Positions 19,183-23,793 of a stretch of DNA of 38,675 nt are shown here, piece after piece. Origin of the DNA: a virus; IMG/VR virus record IMGVR_UViG_3300044678_001237, positions 1 to 38,675 of that record; one strand, written 5' to 3'. A program made the translations under genes and the position numbers. The notes beneath the pieces were generated by a model that was given only the letters and a program-made list of their open reading frames with translations, had not been told where the DNA came from and searched no databases. Positions within the stretch are counted from its first letter, which is position 1; each line of letters opens with the position of its first letter.

Positions 19183-19390
19183 GGATTTGACAGGCACCCT
19201 GAACGGAAATAGCACGAGAACCGAACGGAATGCACACACCCTGGCGAAAAAATGCAACAATTTGGCGGATTTGCTTGCAATCCGGTAACTTCACACTGTA
19301 AGTGTCAGTGGAAAGGTAGAGGCATGAAAACTGAGCAAAACGGCCAATTCTGTGACGAAAAAGATAGTGTGCATTGTCGATTTTCTGACA

Positions 19391-19465
19391 GGGTGCGTAG
19401 CTCAGAGGGAGAGCGTTCGCTTCACACGCGAAATGTCGTAGGTTCGATTCCTACCGCGCCCACCA
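19391..19465 (+). tRNA. tRNA-Val (anticodon CAC), CCA encoded
   Basis: 75 nt folding as a full cloverleaf: acceptor GGGTGCG/CGCGCCC (one T-G pair), D stem GCTC/GAGC, anticodon stem TTCGC/GCGAA with loop TTCACAC (anticodon CAC at 19423-19425, reads GTG), T arm GTAGG-TTCGATT-CCTAC, then A-CCA. The 3' CCA is encoded. It may supply Val tRNA for GTG-rich phage genes or be a host gene captured at an att site. Confidence 0.93.
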
Positions 19466-19479
19466 GAAAAAAGCAGACG

Positions 19480-19986
19480 GTGCTGATTTGCCCCAAGCCA
19501 TACCGGGCAAAAAATGGAACGTCGTCGGCCACAGCTTACATCGACGGGCAGCGCGTGCGCCTAACGATACCGCGTGAGCACGATTTGCGCTTAGTCAATG
19601 AGATGGTTGCGTCCGTGTCTGGGTACACAACGTCCGAAATCGTAACACCAGCCGTCAGAGCCATCCTCCAGCACCGCCTATGCAGCGCAAAAAGTCGAAA
19701 GTATCGCAACAACATTCATTGCAACCTTACGATTGACGACCTTGAGCAGATGTACGGCGATTTAAAGGGGCGATGCTCAGTATCCAACGTCCCATTCGAC
19801 ATAACGAATACCGACGATAAAAAGTGGCGCAGGCCATTTAGGCCCAGCATTGACCGGATAGATTCCTCCGGCCACTACACCCGAGACAATAGCAGGCTGG
19901 TTTGCTCACTGGTCAATTTCGCAATGGGAGCATGGGGCGAAGGCGCAATGATTTTTATGATTGCGCACTTTAGGTCTGGAAGATAA
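19480..19986 (+). CDS. HNH-superfamily-like protein downstream of the tRNA
   Basis: The frame is open from 19252, right through the tRNA, so the start is uncertain. GTG 19480 just after the tRNA is the most upstream plausible one (168 aa); ATG 19603 is an alternative. The C-terminal half has CSVSNVPFD then RPSIDRIDSSGHYTRDNSRLVCSLVNFAMGAWGE, the pattern of phage HNH/His-Me proteins (S-x-D-R-I-D, G-Y-T-x-D-N, L-V-x-x-x-V-N). The first zinc-type C-x2-C is incomplete. It is followed within 10 nt by a tRNA 3'-end fragment, suggesting insertion at a tRNA. Confidence 0.55.
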   Translation: MLICPKPYRAKNGTSSATAYIDGQRVRLTIPREHDLRLVNEMVASVSGYTTSEIVTPAVRAILQHRLCSAKSRKYRNNIHCNLTIDDLEQMYGDLKGRCSVSNVPFDITNTDDKKWRRPFRPSIDRIDSSGHYTRDNSRLVCSLVNFAMGAWGEGAMIFMIAHFRSGR

Positions 19987-20065: not shown

Positions 20066-20174
20066 ACAACTTGCCAACCTTTGACGGTTATCCTTTGGGC
20101 GCTTCAAACGAAGCGGCCCCAGCCGGGACGGCAATCCCGAACTGAGGCCTAACCCAAACACATGAGGATGAGTC

Positions 20175-20294
20175 ATGCGTCGAGCTGTGCGCTCCATAGC
20201 AATTTCAATTTACATAGTCACGGTGCTGTTGCTGGACTTGGCCATGGCACTGATTGTGCTCGCCGGGGTCGCCATTGCGGTCGGCACGCCATGA
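20175..20294 (+). CDS. Tiny membrane protein (39 aa)
   Basis: ATG 20175 follows GAGGATGAG. The product starts MRRAVRSIAISIYIVTVLLL and is a single long hydrophobic helix with a basic N-terminus, ending AIAVGTP. Its TGA overlaps the next ATG (ATGA at 20291), pairing it with another membrane protein. Function unknown; superinfection exclusion or lysis timing are possible jobs. Confidence 0.55.
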   Translation: MRRAVRSIAISIYIVTVLLLDLAMALIVLAGVAIAVGTP

Positions 20295-20473
20295 CCCGGC
20301 GCGTCTTGAAGCGCCCGCCGCAGGGCTGGGCGAGAACCCGCGAGGAGCGCCTGGACCATGCCTGCGCCAGCGTCTGGCCGTTCTTTGTCTTCTGGTGCTT
20401 TCTGTGCGCCATAGCCATATCCAGCTTCGGCGCAAGCGTGTCGCTGATTAATCAGTGGCTGGCGTGGGGTTAG
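20291..20473 (+). CDS. Small membrane protein (60 aa), paired with the previous gene
   Basis: Starts at ATG 20291 in an ATGA overlap; an open extension to 20162 is rejected. A basic N-terminus (MTRRVLKRPPQGWARTREERL) is followed by one transmembrane helix (about 29-46: VWPFFVFWCFLCAIAISSF) and a short tail. Its TAG overlaps the TAA of the convergent polyvalent-protein gene, leaving no room for a terminator between the two strands. Confidence 0.6.
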   Translation: MTRRVLKRPPQGWARTREERLDHACASVWPFFVFWCFLCAIAISSFGASVSLINQWLAWG

Positions 20474-22452
20474 CCACCGATTTGGCTTGCGACTTCCGGC
20501 GGCATGTCTTGGCCCATGACCATCATGCCGCCGCCTGCCGCCGCTGTCATGGGAATGCCGTAACGCTTGAGGATGTCGATGATGCTGTCGTCAAAGATGA
20601 CGTAGTTGTAGGTACCACCTTCTGCGCCACGGCTTCCCGCGTCCTTGTAGCGAATACCCTTGATGCCTTGGTCTTTCAGCGAAATTAAGTCCTGACCACT
20701 AAGGCTTTCCACGATGTCCTTCGTAGTCATGTCGCCCCAATCACTGCCACCACCTGAAAAATGAGGGGAGTTTTCAAGCCTGCGAAGTAAATTCTGCGGC
20801 TGCTCACTAAGAGGCTTATCCCAATCAAGCAGCTCGTCAGGCTTTACGTTCAGGCGGACTTGGTACATGGAGCCGGGGTTCCTGTTTACAAAGTCTTTCC
20901 ATCCATACCTGTTTGCCAACTCATCCAGCGCGCTAGCGATTTCATCTTCCTTGCCGCGCGGCGCAATCTGCCGGACCTTGTCTGTCAGGCGGCTCCAGTC
21001 TGGACGGCTTGACCCGCCTTGCATAATGTCAATCTGCAATTCCTCTAAGGCTCTGTCTGCGAGCGTATAGGCGTCATCTTGCGCTTCAGTCCAGTCCATC
21101 CGCTGTTGCCAAGGAATGGCCGGGAGCGCCTGCGGCTGGTCTGACAACATACCTCGATATGTTTTTGCCACGTCTTCCGCTTCGGCAAAGTATAGCCCAT
21201 GCCCATAAGCCTGCGCGCCTTCGCCCGTCCCAATCTTGTCCATGCTGAACTTGTCGAATGTATGTGGACTGCCGTGGTAGGCGATAAGCCCACCGTCAGC
21301 CTCGTTCACCAGCGGCGTCAATGTCGGCCCAGAGCCATAACTTGCAGAGCCGCCCTTAGAACGTTTGTCCACTATTTGGTGATAAGGCGCAGTATCCGCT
21401 GTGCGCCAAGGGGCAAACGCCTGCGTCGTCAACTGCTCTGGACTGAGGCTTAGGCGGGTTTCTACGTTGCGCGCCTCAACCTCACCGGCTGACCGTTTGT
21501 AGCGGCTGATGTCTTTTGCTTTTGGATTGTCTTTCAGGCGCGCGCCTGAAGAAAACCCTTCGCGCGCCTGAAGTGCGTGCTGCAACTCATGCAGCAATGT
21601 TGAGTGCGCATTATTGTCACCAACGAAAATAGCCTCCCCTGCGGACGACTTTTGTGGCATGTACATGCCTTCGTCTTGGTTCCTCAAGCCATATAGCTTG
21701 ATAGTCGCCAAATCAGGATACGCTTCGAATAGTTTCGGATGTGAAAGCACGTCCCCCACGCTTGCCTTAGTTCCGATGTCGCGTGTCATCTGAGACTGTT
21801 GGTCCGGTATCTCAAACCGCCACTTGTCGTCTACACCCTTAAACCATCCAGTTTCGCTAAATATGTCGTCACTTGACGCGCCGTCTTTTGCCATTTGCTT
21901 TGCGCGTGCAAGTTTAGCCTTGTCTGCCGTCAGGGCTGTCGGGCCGCCGAATGTGAAGCGCACGGACGGGTCAGGCTGAAACGTATACCCCGCCCTATTC
22001 GCCATGCCTTCCACCTGGTCTGCTGCCCGCGCAAGGTAAGGACGTGTCACGCCCAAGCCCTTCACCGCCCCCAAGGTCAATCCCGTCATGGCAAGGTCAT
22101 TGGTAATGTCAGCCGGATAGCCTGTCAGGTCTTCCACGGGCTGGCCGACATAGGTGTTGACCGCTTCGCCCACGGGCTGAAGGATTGGGTTCAAGATTGG
22201 ACTAAGCGCGGCGCTGACAGGTGCGCCCATCCAGCTTGTCCCACCCAAGGCCAAGCGTGGAATGCCCGTCAGCACGTCGCCGCGTTCGACGATATCGCCC
22301 AAGCCCTGCGCGCTGCGTTCGGCCCCGGCCATGAAGTCCTCCCGCACCCGCCCGCCATAGGCTTGAATCTCGTCGGCTATCTGTTCGAGCCGCGTCTTGC
22401 GGCGTTCGGGCATTTTCTTGCCGACTTGTTTGGCCAAAGCATTATCCGCCAT
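20470..22452 (-). CDS. Polyvalent protein: zincin metallopeptidase plus ADP-ribosyltransferase-like domain (660 aa)
   Basis: N-terminus about 1-135 with amphipathic/hydrophobic stretches like ejection proteins. Residues about 195-220 read DDIFSETGWFKGVDDKWRFEIPD, an LPD23-type segment of large polyvalent proteins. A zincin motif follows, LLHELQHALQ (H288, E289, H292), with AGEVEARN about 30 residues later supplying a likely third ligand. Then an ART-like domain: LIAYHGSPHTFDKF (H393), GHGLYFAE (Y421) and a final NYVIFDDSIIDILKRYG, the H-Y-x class pattern. Such proteins are packaged and injected to modify host targets. It is the last late gene, after the spanins; the start overlaps Rz1 by 11 nt. 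Confidence 0.8.
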   Translation of the reverse strand: MADNALAKQVGKKMPERRKTRLEQIADEIQAYGGRVREDFMAGAERSAQGLGDIVERGDVLTGIPRLALGGTSWMGAPVSAALSPILNPILQPVGEAVNTYVGQPVEDLTGYPADITNDLAMTGLTLGAVKGLGVTRPYLARAADQVEGMANRAGYTFQPDPSVRFTFGGPTALTADKAKLARAKQMAKDGASSDDIFSETGWFKGVDDKWRFEIPDQQSQMTRDIGTKASVGDVLSHPKLFEAYPDLATIKLYGLRNQDEGMYMPQKSSAGEAIFVGDNNAHSTLLHELQHALQAREGFSSGARLKDNPKAKDISRYKRSAGEVEARNVETRLSLSPEQLTTQAFAPWRTADTAPYHQIVDKRSKGGSASYGSGPTLTPLVNEADGGLIAYHGSPHTFDKFSMDKIGTGEGAQAYGHGLYFAEAEDVAKTYRGMLSDQPQALPAIPWQQRMDWTEAQDDAYTLADRALEELQIDIMQGGSSRPDWSRLTDKVRQIAPRGKEDEIASALDELANRYGWKDFVNRNPGSMYQVRLNVKPDELLDWDKPLSEQPQNLLRRLENSPHFSGGGSDWGDMTTKDIVESLSGQDLISLKDQGIKGIRYKDAGSRGAEGGTYNYVIFDDSIIDILKRYGIPMTAAAGGGMMVMGQDMPPEVASQIGG

Positions 22453-22708
22453 GCGCGCATTCCTTGATATGCCAATCCGCCAATGCGTTGTGCTTCAGGC
22501 GCAGTTCTTCAAAGCGCCCGATATCTTCGACATATTGCCCCAGCACTTCCCCTTGCGTGACCGCCGGGGCTTCGCCCTTAGTCCCCAGCGGCTTCGCTGG
22601 CAGCAGCAGTTCCGCCGGGGGCTGGGGGCACGTCGGCCCCTTCCCGAAGGCGCTGCAACTGGCTAGCGACAGGGTCAGGCAAGTCACACTCAGGATTCTG
22701 CGGGACAT
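22442..22708 (-). CDS. Outer-membrane spanin (Rz1-like lipoprotein)
   Basis: 88 aa from ATG 22708; a longer open frame is rejected. The N-terminus MSRRILSVTCLTLSLASCSAF is a lipoprotein signal with lipobox LASC, so Cys18 would be lipidated. Then a Pro-rich stretch (GPTCPQPPAELLLP) typical of Rz1, and a helical end. It begins inside the Rz gene in another frame (131-nt overlap), the classic nested Rz/Rz1 arrangement. Pairs with the inner spanin to fuse the two membranes at lysis. Confidence 0.85.
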   Translation of the reverse strand: MSRRILSVTCLTLSLASCSAFGKGPTCPQPPAELLLPAKPLGTKGEAPAVTQGEVLGQYVEDIGRFEELRLKHNALADWHIKECAHGG

Positions 22709-22952
22709 ATTTCGTGACAGTCTGTTTGACGATTTTGACTTTTTCGACCACGCGCGCCTGCGCTGTTGCCAGTTCACGCTGCGCCTTCAGCCGGGCCACG
22801 TCGGCAGCGACCCGGCGTTCTAGTTCGTTGCGCAGTTCAAGCCGATAGCCTTCAGCCGTGGCGGCTTTCAATCGCCAGCCATTGGCCACCCACCCTGCAT
22901 AGACAAGCCCCAGAACGAACGCGGCCCAAAGGCCGAGCCGAAGATAGGTCAC
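22578..22952 (-). CDS. Inner-membrane spanin (Rz-like)
   Basis: 124 aa, GTG start in a GTGA overlap with the holin stop. One N-terminal transmembrane helix (about 5-24, LGLWAAFVLGLVYAGWVANG), a long coiled coil (about 30-75, LRNELERRVAADVARLKAQRELATAQA), and the Rz-like NPECDLPDPVASQLQRLR near residue 90. N-in, C-out topology fits an i-spanin. The Ala/Pro/Gly tail overlaps the Rz1 signal sequence in DNA. Confidence 0.82.
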   Translation of the reverse strand: MTYLRLGLWAAFVLGLVYAGWVANGWRLKAATAEGYRLELRNELERRVAADVARLKAQRELATAQARVVEKVKIVKQTVTKYVPQNPECDLPDPVASQLQRLREGADVPPAPGGTAAASEAAGD

Positions 22953-23188
22953 GGCTTCGGCAGGTTGTTGGGCTGGTTGGCAGCACCCACGGCGGTCAAG
23001 GCAATCAGCAGGGCATTCACTTCGTTCAGGTAGGGAATGGTGAAGCCCGCACCGAAGGTGTCCAGCACAACACTGACCGCCACAATCAGGGCCGACAGGA
23101 CGGCAGCGACAGCGGCAATGCGGGTCTTATAGCCGGGGAAGTAATTCAGCGCCGAGACAATCACGTCAATCGCAAGTTTCCAGTTCAT
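22949..23188 (-). CDS. Holin-like two-helix membrane protein (79 aa)
   Basis: AAGGAAG precedes ATG 23188. After a short N-terminus (MNWKLAIDVIVSALNYFPGYKTR) come two hydrophobic helices (about 24-44 and 55-69) with a Pro-rich C-terminus. Placed between an endolysin/XhlA-like pair and spanins. The endolysin has no signal sequence, so a pore-forming holin is needed for its release. Confidence 0.7.
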   Translation of the reverse strand: MNWKLAIDVIVSALNYFPGYKTRIAAVAAVLSALIVAVSVVLDTFGAGFTIPYLNEVNALLIALTAVGAANQPNNLPKP

Positions 23189-23200
23189 GGGTCTTCCTTT

Positions 23201-23422
23201 CTACTGCGTTCCGATTTTCACGCCAAAATACGCAAGCAATCCCGCGACAGCGGCTATCACGGAATATCCGAGAATAATCACGTAGCGTGCACCGCGAAGC
23301 TGGTGCAGCACGCTGGTCAGCGTCTGCACTTCTGCCCGCAGGCGTGACACTTCATTGGTCAGGCCGATAACCTGGCCCTGCAGCTTTCCAACGTCTTGGT
23401 GAAGTTCTGCAATCGTGGTCAT
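23201..23422 (-). CDS. XhlA-like coiled-coil/tail-anchored protein (73 aa)
   Basis: ATG 23422 in an ATGA overlap with the endolysin stop. The N-terminal coiled coil (IAELHQDVGKLQGQVIGLTNEVSRLRAEVQTL) and single C-terminal membrane helix (YVIILGYSVIAAVAGLLAYFG) match the layout of haemolysin XhlA-type proteins, which sit in lysis cassettes and act with holin and endolysin. Confidence 0.65.
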   Translation of the reverse strand: MTTIAELHQDVGKLQGQVIGLTNEVSRLRAEVQTLTSVLHQLRGARYVIILGYSVIAAVAGLLAYFGVKIGTQ

Positions 23423-23793
23423 GGGTAGGATTTCCTGTCGAGTTCGATGTGAGGCCCGTCCTTGAAGGTTCGGAAATCTCCTCCCCAGACGATGGGCACC
23501 TTGAGTTCCTGCGCGGCCTTCTTGAACGCGTCCGCCACCGGCTTGAACGCAGGCCACTTCCATGTGATTTGCCCACCCACGACAGGCACGAAGTCGATGG
23601 CGTGACCCGTCAGGTGGCGCGAGTTCATGGTCTTCGACGCGCCCTTGGCGACCAGTTCTTTCTGGCGCTCGACCGTGCGCACGCCTTCGGTGATAATGAA
23701 CGGCGTGGGGCTAAGTTCAGCGGCGCGCTTGACCACGCGCACAAGGTCGCCGTGCACGCCTTTCAGCGCGGTGAGGCTTCGGGTGTTGAGCAT
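23419..23793 (-). CDS. Endolysin, M15-type (VanY-like) L-alanyl-D-glutamate/D-Ala peptidase
   Basis: 124 aa. The zinc site is SRHLTGHAIDFVPV (H60, D67) and DGPHIEL (H115), the M15/VanY pattern, with W103-GGDF between them. Length is that of short single-domain phage peptidases. No signal peptide is present, so it accumulates in the cytoplasm until the holin fires. It cuts peptide stems or bridges of peptidoglycan. Confidence 0.88.
   Translation of the reverse strand: MLNTRSLTALKGVHGDLVRVVKRAAELSPTPFIITEGVRTVERQKELVAKGASKTMNSRHLTGHAIDFVPVVGGQITWKWPAFKPVADAFKKAAQELKVPIVWGGDFRTFKDGPHIELDRKSYP

What the first reader, a model, noticed from the sequence alone, without database searches (positions are those of the whole stretch)
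20470..22452. Late-operon effector joining a zincin metallopeptidase to an ADP-ribosyltransferase-like domain
The 660-aa protein holds HELQH with a downstream GEVEAR, an LPD23-like WRFEIPD segment, and an H-Y type ART region (AYHGSPHTF, GHGLYFAE, final NYVIFDD). It is the last late gene, after spanins, and has an ejection-protein-like N-terminus. This fits a virion-packaged polyvalent effector delivered with the DNA, possibly cleaving and ADP-ribosylating host machinery on entry. The combination in a P22-like temperate phage is worth attention.
Basis: partly seen in the sequence, partly recalled or inferred. Interest (0 to 1): 0.75.

Follow-up and report, generated by a model that had tools for sequence, protein, structure and literature searches.

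The report
Phage protein carrying two swappable enzymes
Next to its lysis genes this bacterial virus carries one protein that fuses a predicted protein-cutting enzyme to a predicted protein-tagging (ADP-ribosylating) enzyme behind a conserved front segment, probably injected with the DNA; sister viruses keep the front segment but swap the enzymes, which makes the delivery idea testable.

Summary
The gene lies on the minus strand (22452-20470, 660 aa). It has LPD23 (E 9e-23), HELQH plus AGEVEAR, and an H-Y ART (ART-PolyVal; just under the Pfam cut-off in the whole protein, above it for the isolated domain). It starts inside the spanin gene Rz1 and is the last late-strand gene. The zincin reading is strong: all 49 distinct LPD23 copies found have HExxH downstream and 48 the third-ligand motif, so LPD23 looks like the front half of the peptidase. 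The ART keeps H393 and Y421, but the usual third acidic residue is replaced (conserved N616). Nothing supports an 'ejection-protein-like' N-terminus. The new part is modularity. A sister phage keeps residues 1-157 (dN/dS 0.08) and the hinge, lacks the zincin, and has an unrelated payload whose homologue is fused to a portal protein elsewhere. Related phages lack the gene. Three other N-terminal families each occur with either zincin or ART, mostly among head genes. A homologous zincin block lies in an MS-verified virion protein of phage H66. Best reading: a short, accessory, MuF-free polyvalent effector packaged in the virion; new variant of a known kind. Packaging and both activities are untested.

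The parts
20470..22452 (-). whole effector gene, 660 aa, ATG start overlapping the end of Rz1 by 11 nt
21982..22452 (-). residues 1-157: conserved N-terminal segment (putative packaging/delivery anchor); GC3 0.71; mildly hydrophobic Gly/Ala-rich middle
   Evidence: 98% aa / 95.5% nt identical in L002/L003, dN 0.013, dS 0.156; no family match; hydropathy and GC3
21358..21960 (-). residues 165-365: LPD23-zincin domain (GC3 0.565 over residues 158-371), absent from sister phages L002/L003
21790..21954 (-). LPD23 (167-221), read here as the N-terminal half of the peptidase
   Evidence: Pfam PF18838 E 9.4e-23; one compact AF2 model with the HExxH helix, pTM 0.85
21577..21591 (-). HELQH (288-292), predicted zinc ligands and general base
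   Evidence: H288, E289, H292 invariant 43/43
21469..21486 (-). GEVEAR (323-328), predicted third zinc ligand E324 or E326
   Evidence: at least 90% conserved; 48/49
21289..21339 (-). hinge YGSGPTLTPLVNEADGG (372-388), kept in sister phages with and without the zincin
   Evidence: 41 bp at 90% identity in L002; motif scan
20545..21291 (-). residues 388-636: ART-PolyVal-like domain
21256..21282 (-). AYHGSPHTF (391-399), strand 1 with H393
   Evidence: H393 31/32
21181..21204 (-). GHGLYFAE (417-424), strand 2 with Y421
   Evidence: Y421 32/32
20587..20607 (-). NYVIFDD (616-622), penultimate strand; no acid at the usual catalytic position (N616 in 24/30)
22442..22777 (-). Rz1-like outer spanin, overlaps the effector start
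   Evidence: reading frame, nesting in Rz and lipobox-like sequence
22578..22952 (-). Rz-like spanin
   Evidence: PHROGs
22949..23188 (-). holin-like small membrane protein
   Evidence: sequence and position; no PHROGs match
23419..23793 (-). endolysin
   Evidence: PHROGs phrog_465 E 5.6e-60

Best explanation
An accessory polyvalent effector of a P22-like temperate phage. It is translated late, coupled to the spanin genes, and is probably packaged in the virion through its conserved N-terminal segment and injected with the DNA. In the host cell the zincin cleaves a protein target (or the effector itself) and the ART transfers ADP-ribose from NAD+ to host macromolecules, favouring the incoming genome. 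The zincin and ART are exchangeable payload cassettes behind a constant anchor and a hinge. Shown: the domains, their conserved residues, the cassette exchange, purifying selection on the anchor, and absence of the gene from relatives. Inferred: packaging, injection, both enzyme activities, and targets.
For: LPD23 and ART-PolyVal matches. Metal-site residues invariant; 17 of 43 zincin relatives match DUF6782 'putative metallopeptidase' and single members match M78 and SprT-like. AF2 models pLDDT 87 / pTM 0.85 and 83 / 0.71; the ART model matches BFVD proteins named ART-PolyVal (E 3e-15 to 1e-4), and weak PDB hits include tankyrase, PARP1, PARP4 and RES. Exchange: L002/L003 keep residues 1-157 and the hinge, lack residues 158-371, and replace the ART by a domain of about 230 aa whose homologue is the C-terminus of a portal protein. 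Anchor dN/dS 0.08. Head context of relatives: L035 (same zincin-then-ART order, 664 aa) is directly followed by a P22-type portal; L013 overlaps the portal stop and precedes scaffold and coat; phiGT1 gene 5 lies between portal and scaffold; L051 follows a SU10-type portal, L037 and L093 flank virion structural genes, L087 follows terminase. H66_0060, containing the zincin block, is annotated as MS-verified in the virion, as is another H66 protein encoded after the lysis genes.
Against: No direct evidence that this protein is in virions. The gene lies after the lysis genes, not in the head operon. The anchor has no detectable relation to any ejection or head protein. Third ART catalytic acid not identifiable. 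PDB fold matches are not significant for either domain (best E 0.23 and 0.14).
Confidence: 0.58

Rival explanations
1. A late-expressed cargo (moron) that is not packaged: it acts in the producing cell late in infection, or in lysogens, for example in superinfection exclusion or host modification.
For: Last gene of the late strand, next to lysis genes and opposite the early/integrase side; absent from related phages L115 and L126; cassette GC3 lower than the anchor.
Against: Same-strand overlap with Rz1; relatives of both domains sit among head genes; H66_0060 is in virions according to its record.
Confidence: 0.22
2. The zincin is an autoprocessing protease that frees the ART from the anchor, so the protein has one true effector. 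(A sub-mechanism, compatible with packaging.)
For: Iyer et al. 2017 propose this role for polyvalent MPTases (PMC5512222); here the zincin sits between anchor and ART.
Against: 17 complete short proteins carry the zincin with no other recognised payload, and 16 carry the ART without it; the hinge is kept in L002/L003, which have no zincin.
Confidence: 0.3
3. The ART-like domain is catalytically dead or a pure NAD/ADP-ribose binder.
For: The strand that carries the catalytic acid in PARPs and in the HYD2 clade has Y615-N616 here and N in 24 of 30 relatives.
Against: H393, Y421 and the GEGAQAYGHGLYFAE loop are nearly invariant; from general knowledge, PARP-family mono-ADP-ribosyltransferases without the glutamate can be active; D543, D545 or D604, also conserved, might substitute.
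Confidence: 0.2
4. The cassette exchange between the window and L002/L003 is an assembly chimera.
For: All are metagenome contigs.
Against: Two separate records from different samples (L002, L003) are identical over the first 15 kb; a third phage (L004, about 75-80% nt) has anchor, hinge and ART without zincin; three unrelated N-terminal families also carry alternative payloads.
Confidence: 0.04

Closest known systems
Polyvalent proteins (Iyer et al. 2017, PMC5512222)
   Same: Zincin-like MPTase, ART and LPD domains in one polypeptide; phage late-gene setting; predicted delivery with DNA
   Different: Short (660 aa, two payloads); a conserved clade-specific anchor with recent, clean cassette exchange; LPD23 shown here to be inseparable from the zincin (the paper's LPD section names LPD28 as the MPTase-linked LPD)
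MuF polymorphic toxins of temperate phages (Jamet et al. 2017, PMC5576092)
   Same: Constant N-terminus with variable C-terminal enzyme; metallopeptidase (20%) and ART (14%) among their payloads; proposed injection with DNA
   Different: No MuF domain; no same-strand small immunity-like ORF downstream; the gene lies after the lysis cassette
H66_0060 of Pseudomonas phage H66 (F116-like)
   Same: Homologous LPD23-zincin block; MS-verified virion protein (record note)
   Different: 3787-aa giant protein in the structural operon; no ART of this subfamily detected in it
Phage T4 Alt
   Same: Head-packaged, injected ART is the functional model
   Different: R-S-E class ART of another family, one enzyme, no zincin (from PMC5512222 and general knowledge)

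Membership tests
Polyvalent proteins | two or more disparate domains of the polyvalent network in one chain | tested here: met
   LPD23-zincin and ART-PolyVal
Polyvalent proteins | gene in the vicinity of late/virion genes | tested here: met
   last gene of the late strand after ejection, tail and lysis genes; relatives in head operons
Polyvalent proteins | transfer with the DNA at infection | not testable with these tools
   indirect only: H66_0060 record note
LPD23 (PF18838) | Pfam gathering score | tested here: met
   80.2 bits against 27
Zincin-like MPTase | HExxH plus a glutamate on a later helix | tested here: met
   43/43 and 48/49; helices 133-149 and 173-185 in the model
Zincin-like MPTase | zincin fold | tested here: inconclusive
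   no significant PDB match; weak hits include several HExxH enzymes; DUF6782 matched by 17/43 relatives
ART-PolyVal / Tox-ART-HYD2 | Pfam gathering score | tested here: inconclusive
   29.1 bits (whole protein) and 32.6 (domain alone) against 31.2; 20 of 26 relatives match at E<0.01
ART-PolyVal / Tox-ART-HYD2 | H in strand 1 and Y in strand 2 | tested here: met
   H393, Y421; strands E16-22 and E47-50 in the model
ART-PolyVal / Tox-ART-HYD2 | D in strand 5 | tested here: inconclusive
   position has Y/R-N in this subfamily; other conserved Asp residues nearby
MuF polymorphic toxins | N-terminal MuF domain | tested here: not met
   no Pfam or PHROGs match in residues 1-158
MuF polymorphic toxins | small immunity ORF directly downstream | tested here: not met
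   the neighbouring gene is convergent, on the other strand
P22-like podovirus | P22-type portal and connector proteins | tested here: met
   P22_portal E 6e-97; Hc3 phrog_578; DNA-ejection phrog_598 and 26400

The most novel reading that the evidence does not exclude
A MuF-independent polymorphic effector system packaged in podovirus-type virions: several short N-terminal adaptor families, each with exchangeable enzyme payloads (zincin, ART, and the unnamed portal-fused domain of L002), the window protein being a two-payload member, with LPD23 redefined as the front half of a zincin peptidase family.
Probability: 0.4. Interest if true: 0.65.

Novelty: new variant of a known kind. Interest (0 to 1): 0.52.

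Why it matters
Polyvalent effectors are usually giant proteins whose parts are hard to test. Here a short version comes with natural variants (zincin plus ART, other payload, no gene) in nearly the same phage backbone. That makes two open questions directly testable: what sequence sends an effector into a phage head, and whether the embedded zincins process the chain or attack the host. The LPD23 result gives a function prediction to a domain of unknown function.

Tried and rejected
N-terminal 149 aa against phage records: no match at E 0.1; against viral contigs: only the same three contigs; first 157 aa against 385 genomes of the class of the Roseovarius genome: none, which without a positive control shows little. 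Zincin profile against 198 genomes of the Roseovarius order: none, same caveat. A joint alignment of both domains was misaligned and not used. Sequence profiles against the PDB: no ART hit, one non-significant metalloprotease. Phage collection search for the L002 payload: none. Weak adaptor matches L094-L005 and L093-L014 (E 8e-6, 8e-5) were discarded because decoys reached 3e-6; only the three pairs at E below 1e-16 are used. Considered and rejected: plus-strand reading; the tRNA-Val as part of the system. No paper with 'LPD23' as a domain name was found in the held library.

Full report
What is there. The gene is on the minus strand, 22452 to 20470, 660 aa. Pfam finds LPD23 at 167-221 (E 9.4e-23) and ART-PolyVal at 389-433 (29.1 bits, cut-off 31.2). 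Scanned alone, the C-terminal domain scores 32.6 bits. PHROGs matches to residues 150-360 lie inside giant phage proteins of 1600-3400 aa. The start codon lies 11 nt inside an Rz1-like gene, downstream of ejection proteins, a tail-type protein, an endolysin, a holin-like gene and Rz. The record is a 38,675-bp virus contig with P22-type portal, Hc3, coat and ejection proteins and an integrase.

The peptidase. Most relatives were collected by LPD23 peptide patterns, and I asked whether the metal site follows. In 49 of 49 distinct copies an HExxH (one HExxxH) lies 72-171 residues downstream, and in 48 a G/N-E-x-E motif follows; the exception is cut by the contig end. In the alignment H288, E289 and H292 are invariant in 43 of 43, and E324/E326 are at least 90% conserved. 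AlphaFold2 puts LPD23 and the metal-site helices into one compact domain (pLDDT 87, pTM 0.85). Foldseek gives no significant PDB match; the weak hits include several HExxH enzymes. 17 of 43 relatives match DUF6782, 'putative metallopeptidase'. I conclude that LPD23 is the N-terminal part of a zincin-like family of its own.

The ART. H393 is conserved in 31 of 32 and Y421 in 32 of 32 relatives. The model (pLDDT 83, pTM 0.71) matches viral models named ART-PolyVal-like, and weak PDB matches include tankyrase 2, PARP1, PARP4 and RES; the top PDB match is a chain of the cyanophage A4 pre-ejectosome (E 0.14, not significant). The strand that carries the third catalytic acid in PARPs, and the Asp in polyvalent ARTs (PMC5512222), has Y615-N616 here and N616 in 24 of 30 relatives (comparison by eye with the canonical copy in L022; the profile comparison aligned only the first 41 columns). 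Activity is therefore plausible, not shown.

Cassette exchange. L002 and L003 (two records, identical over the first 15 kb) are sister phages, 97% nt identical over a 2.9-kb structural stretch. Their gene in the same place encodes 415 aa: residues 1-157 at 98% identity, then directly the hinge YGSGPTLTPLV, then a different domain. The zincin block (158-371) is absent and the ART is replaced. The anchor is under purifying selection (dN 0.013, dS 0.156). The new payload has a homologue at the C-terminus of a portal protein in L109. L004, a more distant relative, has anchor, hinge and ART without the zincin; its ART reading frame is shifted in that contig, really or by sequencing error. L115 and L126, with the same lysis genes, lack the gene. 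GC3 falls from 0.71 in the anchor to 0.57 in the zincin block and 0.62 in the ART.

A wider pattern. Among fetched loci, 17 complete short proteins carry the zincin alone and 16 the ART alone; 13 distinct proteins, the window's included, carry both, mostly giants; L035 has the same order and nearly the same length as the window protein. The N-terminal segments of three pairs are homologous although one member carries the zincin and the other the ART: L087/L011 (E 4e-21), L039/L026 (4e-18), L089/phiGT1 gene 5 (1.5e-17). Reversed and shuffled decoys reached 3e-6 at best, so weaker pairs were dropped. These short genes lie among head genes in most contigs examined: next to a P22-type portal (L035), between portal and scaffold (L013; phiGT1), after a SU10-type portal (L051), next to virion structural genes (L037, L093), after terminase (L087). 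In phage H66 the 3787-aa protein with the zincin block is recorded as MS-verified in the virion, as is a protein encoded after the lysis genes.

Mechanism. Most likely the anchor takes the chain into the virion and the enzymes act after injection. That both domains occur alone behind similar N-terminal stretches argues that each is a payload in its own right; autoprocessing by the zincin remains possible (Iyer et al. 2017 propose both roles). The hinge is kept where there is no zincin, so it is unlikely to exist only as a zincin cleavage site.

Comparison and novelty. The protein belongs with polyvalent proteins by domain content and context. It behaves like MuF polymorphic toxins but is not one: no MuF domain and no downstream immunity ORF (PMC5576092). 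I rate it a new variant of a known kind. Main uncertainties: packaging, both activities, the third ART residue, and how far the adaptor pattern extends; it rests on three cross-matching pairs plus the window clade.

Noticed in passing
window 19391-19465 (+): A tRNA-Val (CAC) gene about 1 kb downstream of the integrase, overlapping the 5' part of an ORF (19252-19986) whose C-terminal half matches HNH/endonuclease VII families; no tRNA was found in the related loci scanned.
   Followed up: partly
window 20162-20473 (+): Convergent small ORF ending against the effector gene; its last 60 codons encode a conserved one-helix membrane protein, also present but displaced from the effector by about 1.6 kb in L003 (12824-13006).
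   Followed up: partly
L003 7108-8385: Sister phages carry an extra 425-aa gene that looks like a calcineurin-type phosphoesterase between endolysin and holin, absent from the window; similar-looking ORFs occur in L115, L119 and L126.
   Followed up: no
L109 1961-4117: Portal protein (Phage_portal_3) with a C-terminal domain homologous to the L002 payload, followed by an ORF that resembles a MuF-type head protein: a portal-fused payload of unknown function.
   Followed up: partly
L010 6506-8464: 652-aa protein joining an inorganic pyrophosphatase domain (InPase) to this ART subfamily.
   Followed up: no
PDB 9k3a chain B, compared with window 20506-21333: Best, not significant, PDB fold match of the ART model is a protein of the cyanophage A4 pre-ejectosome; worth checking whether that virion protein holds an ART-like domain.
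   Followed up: no
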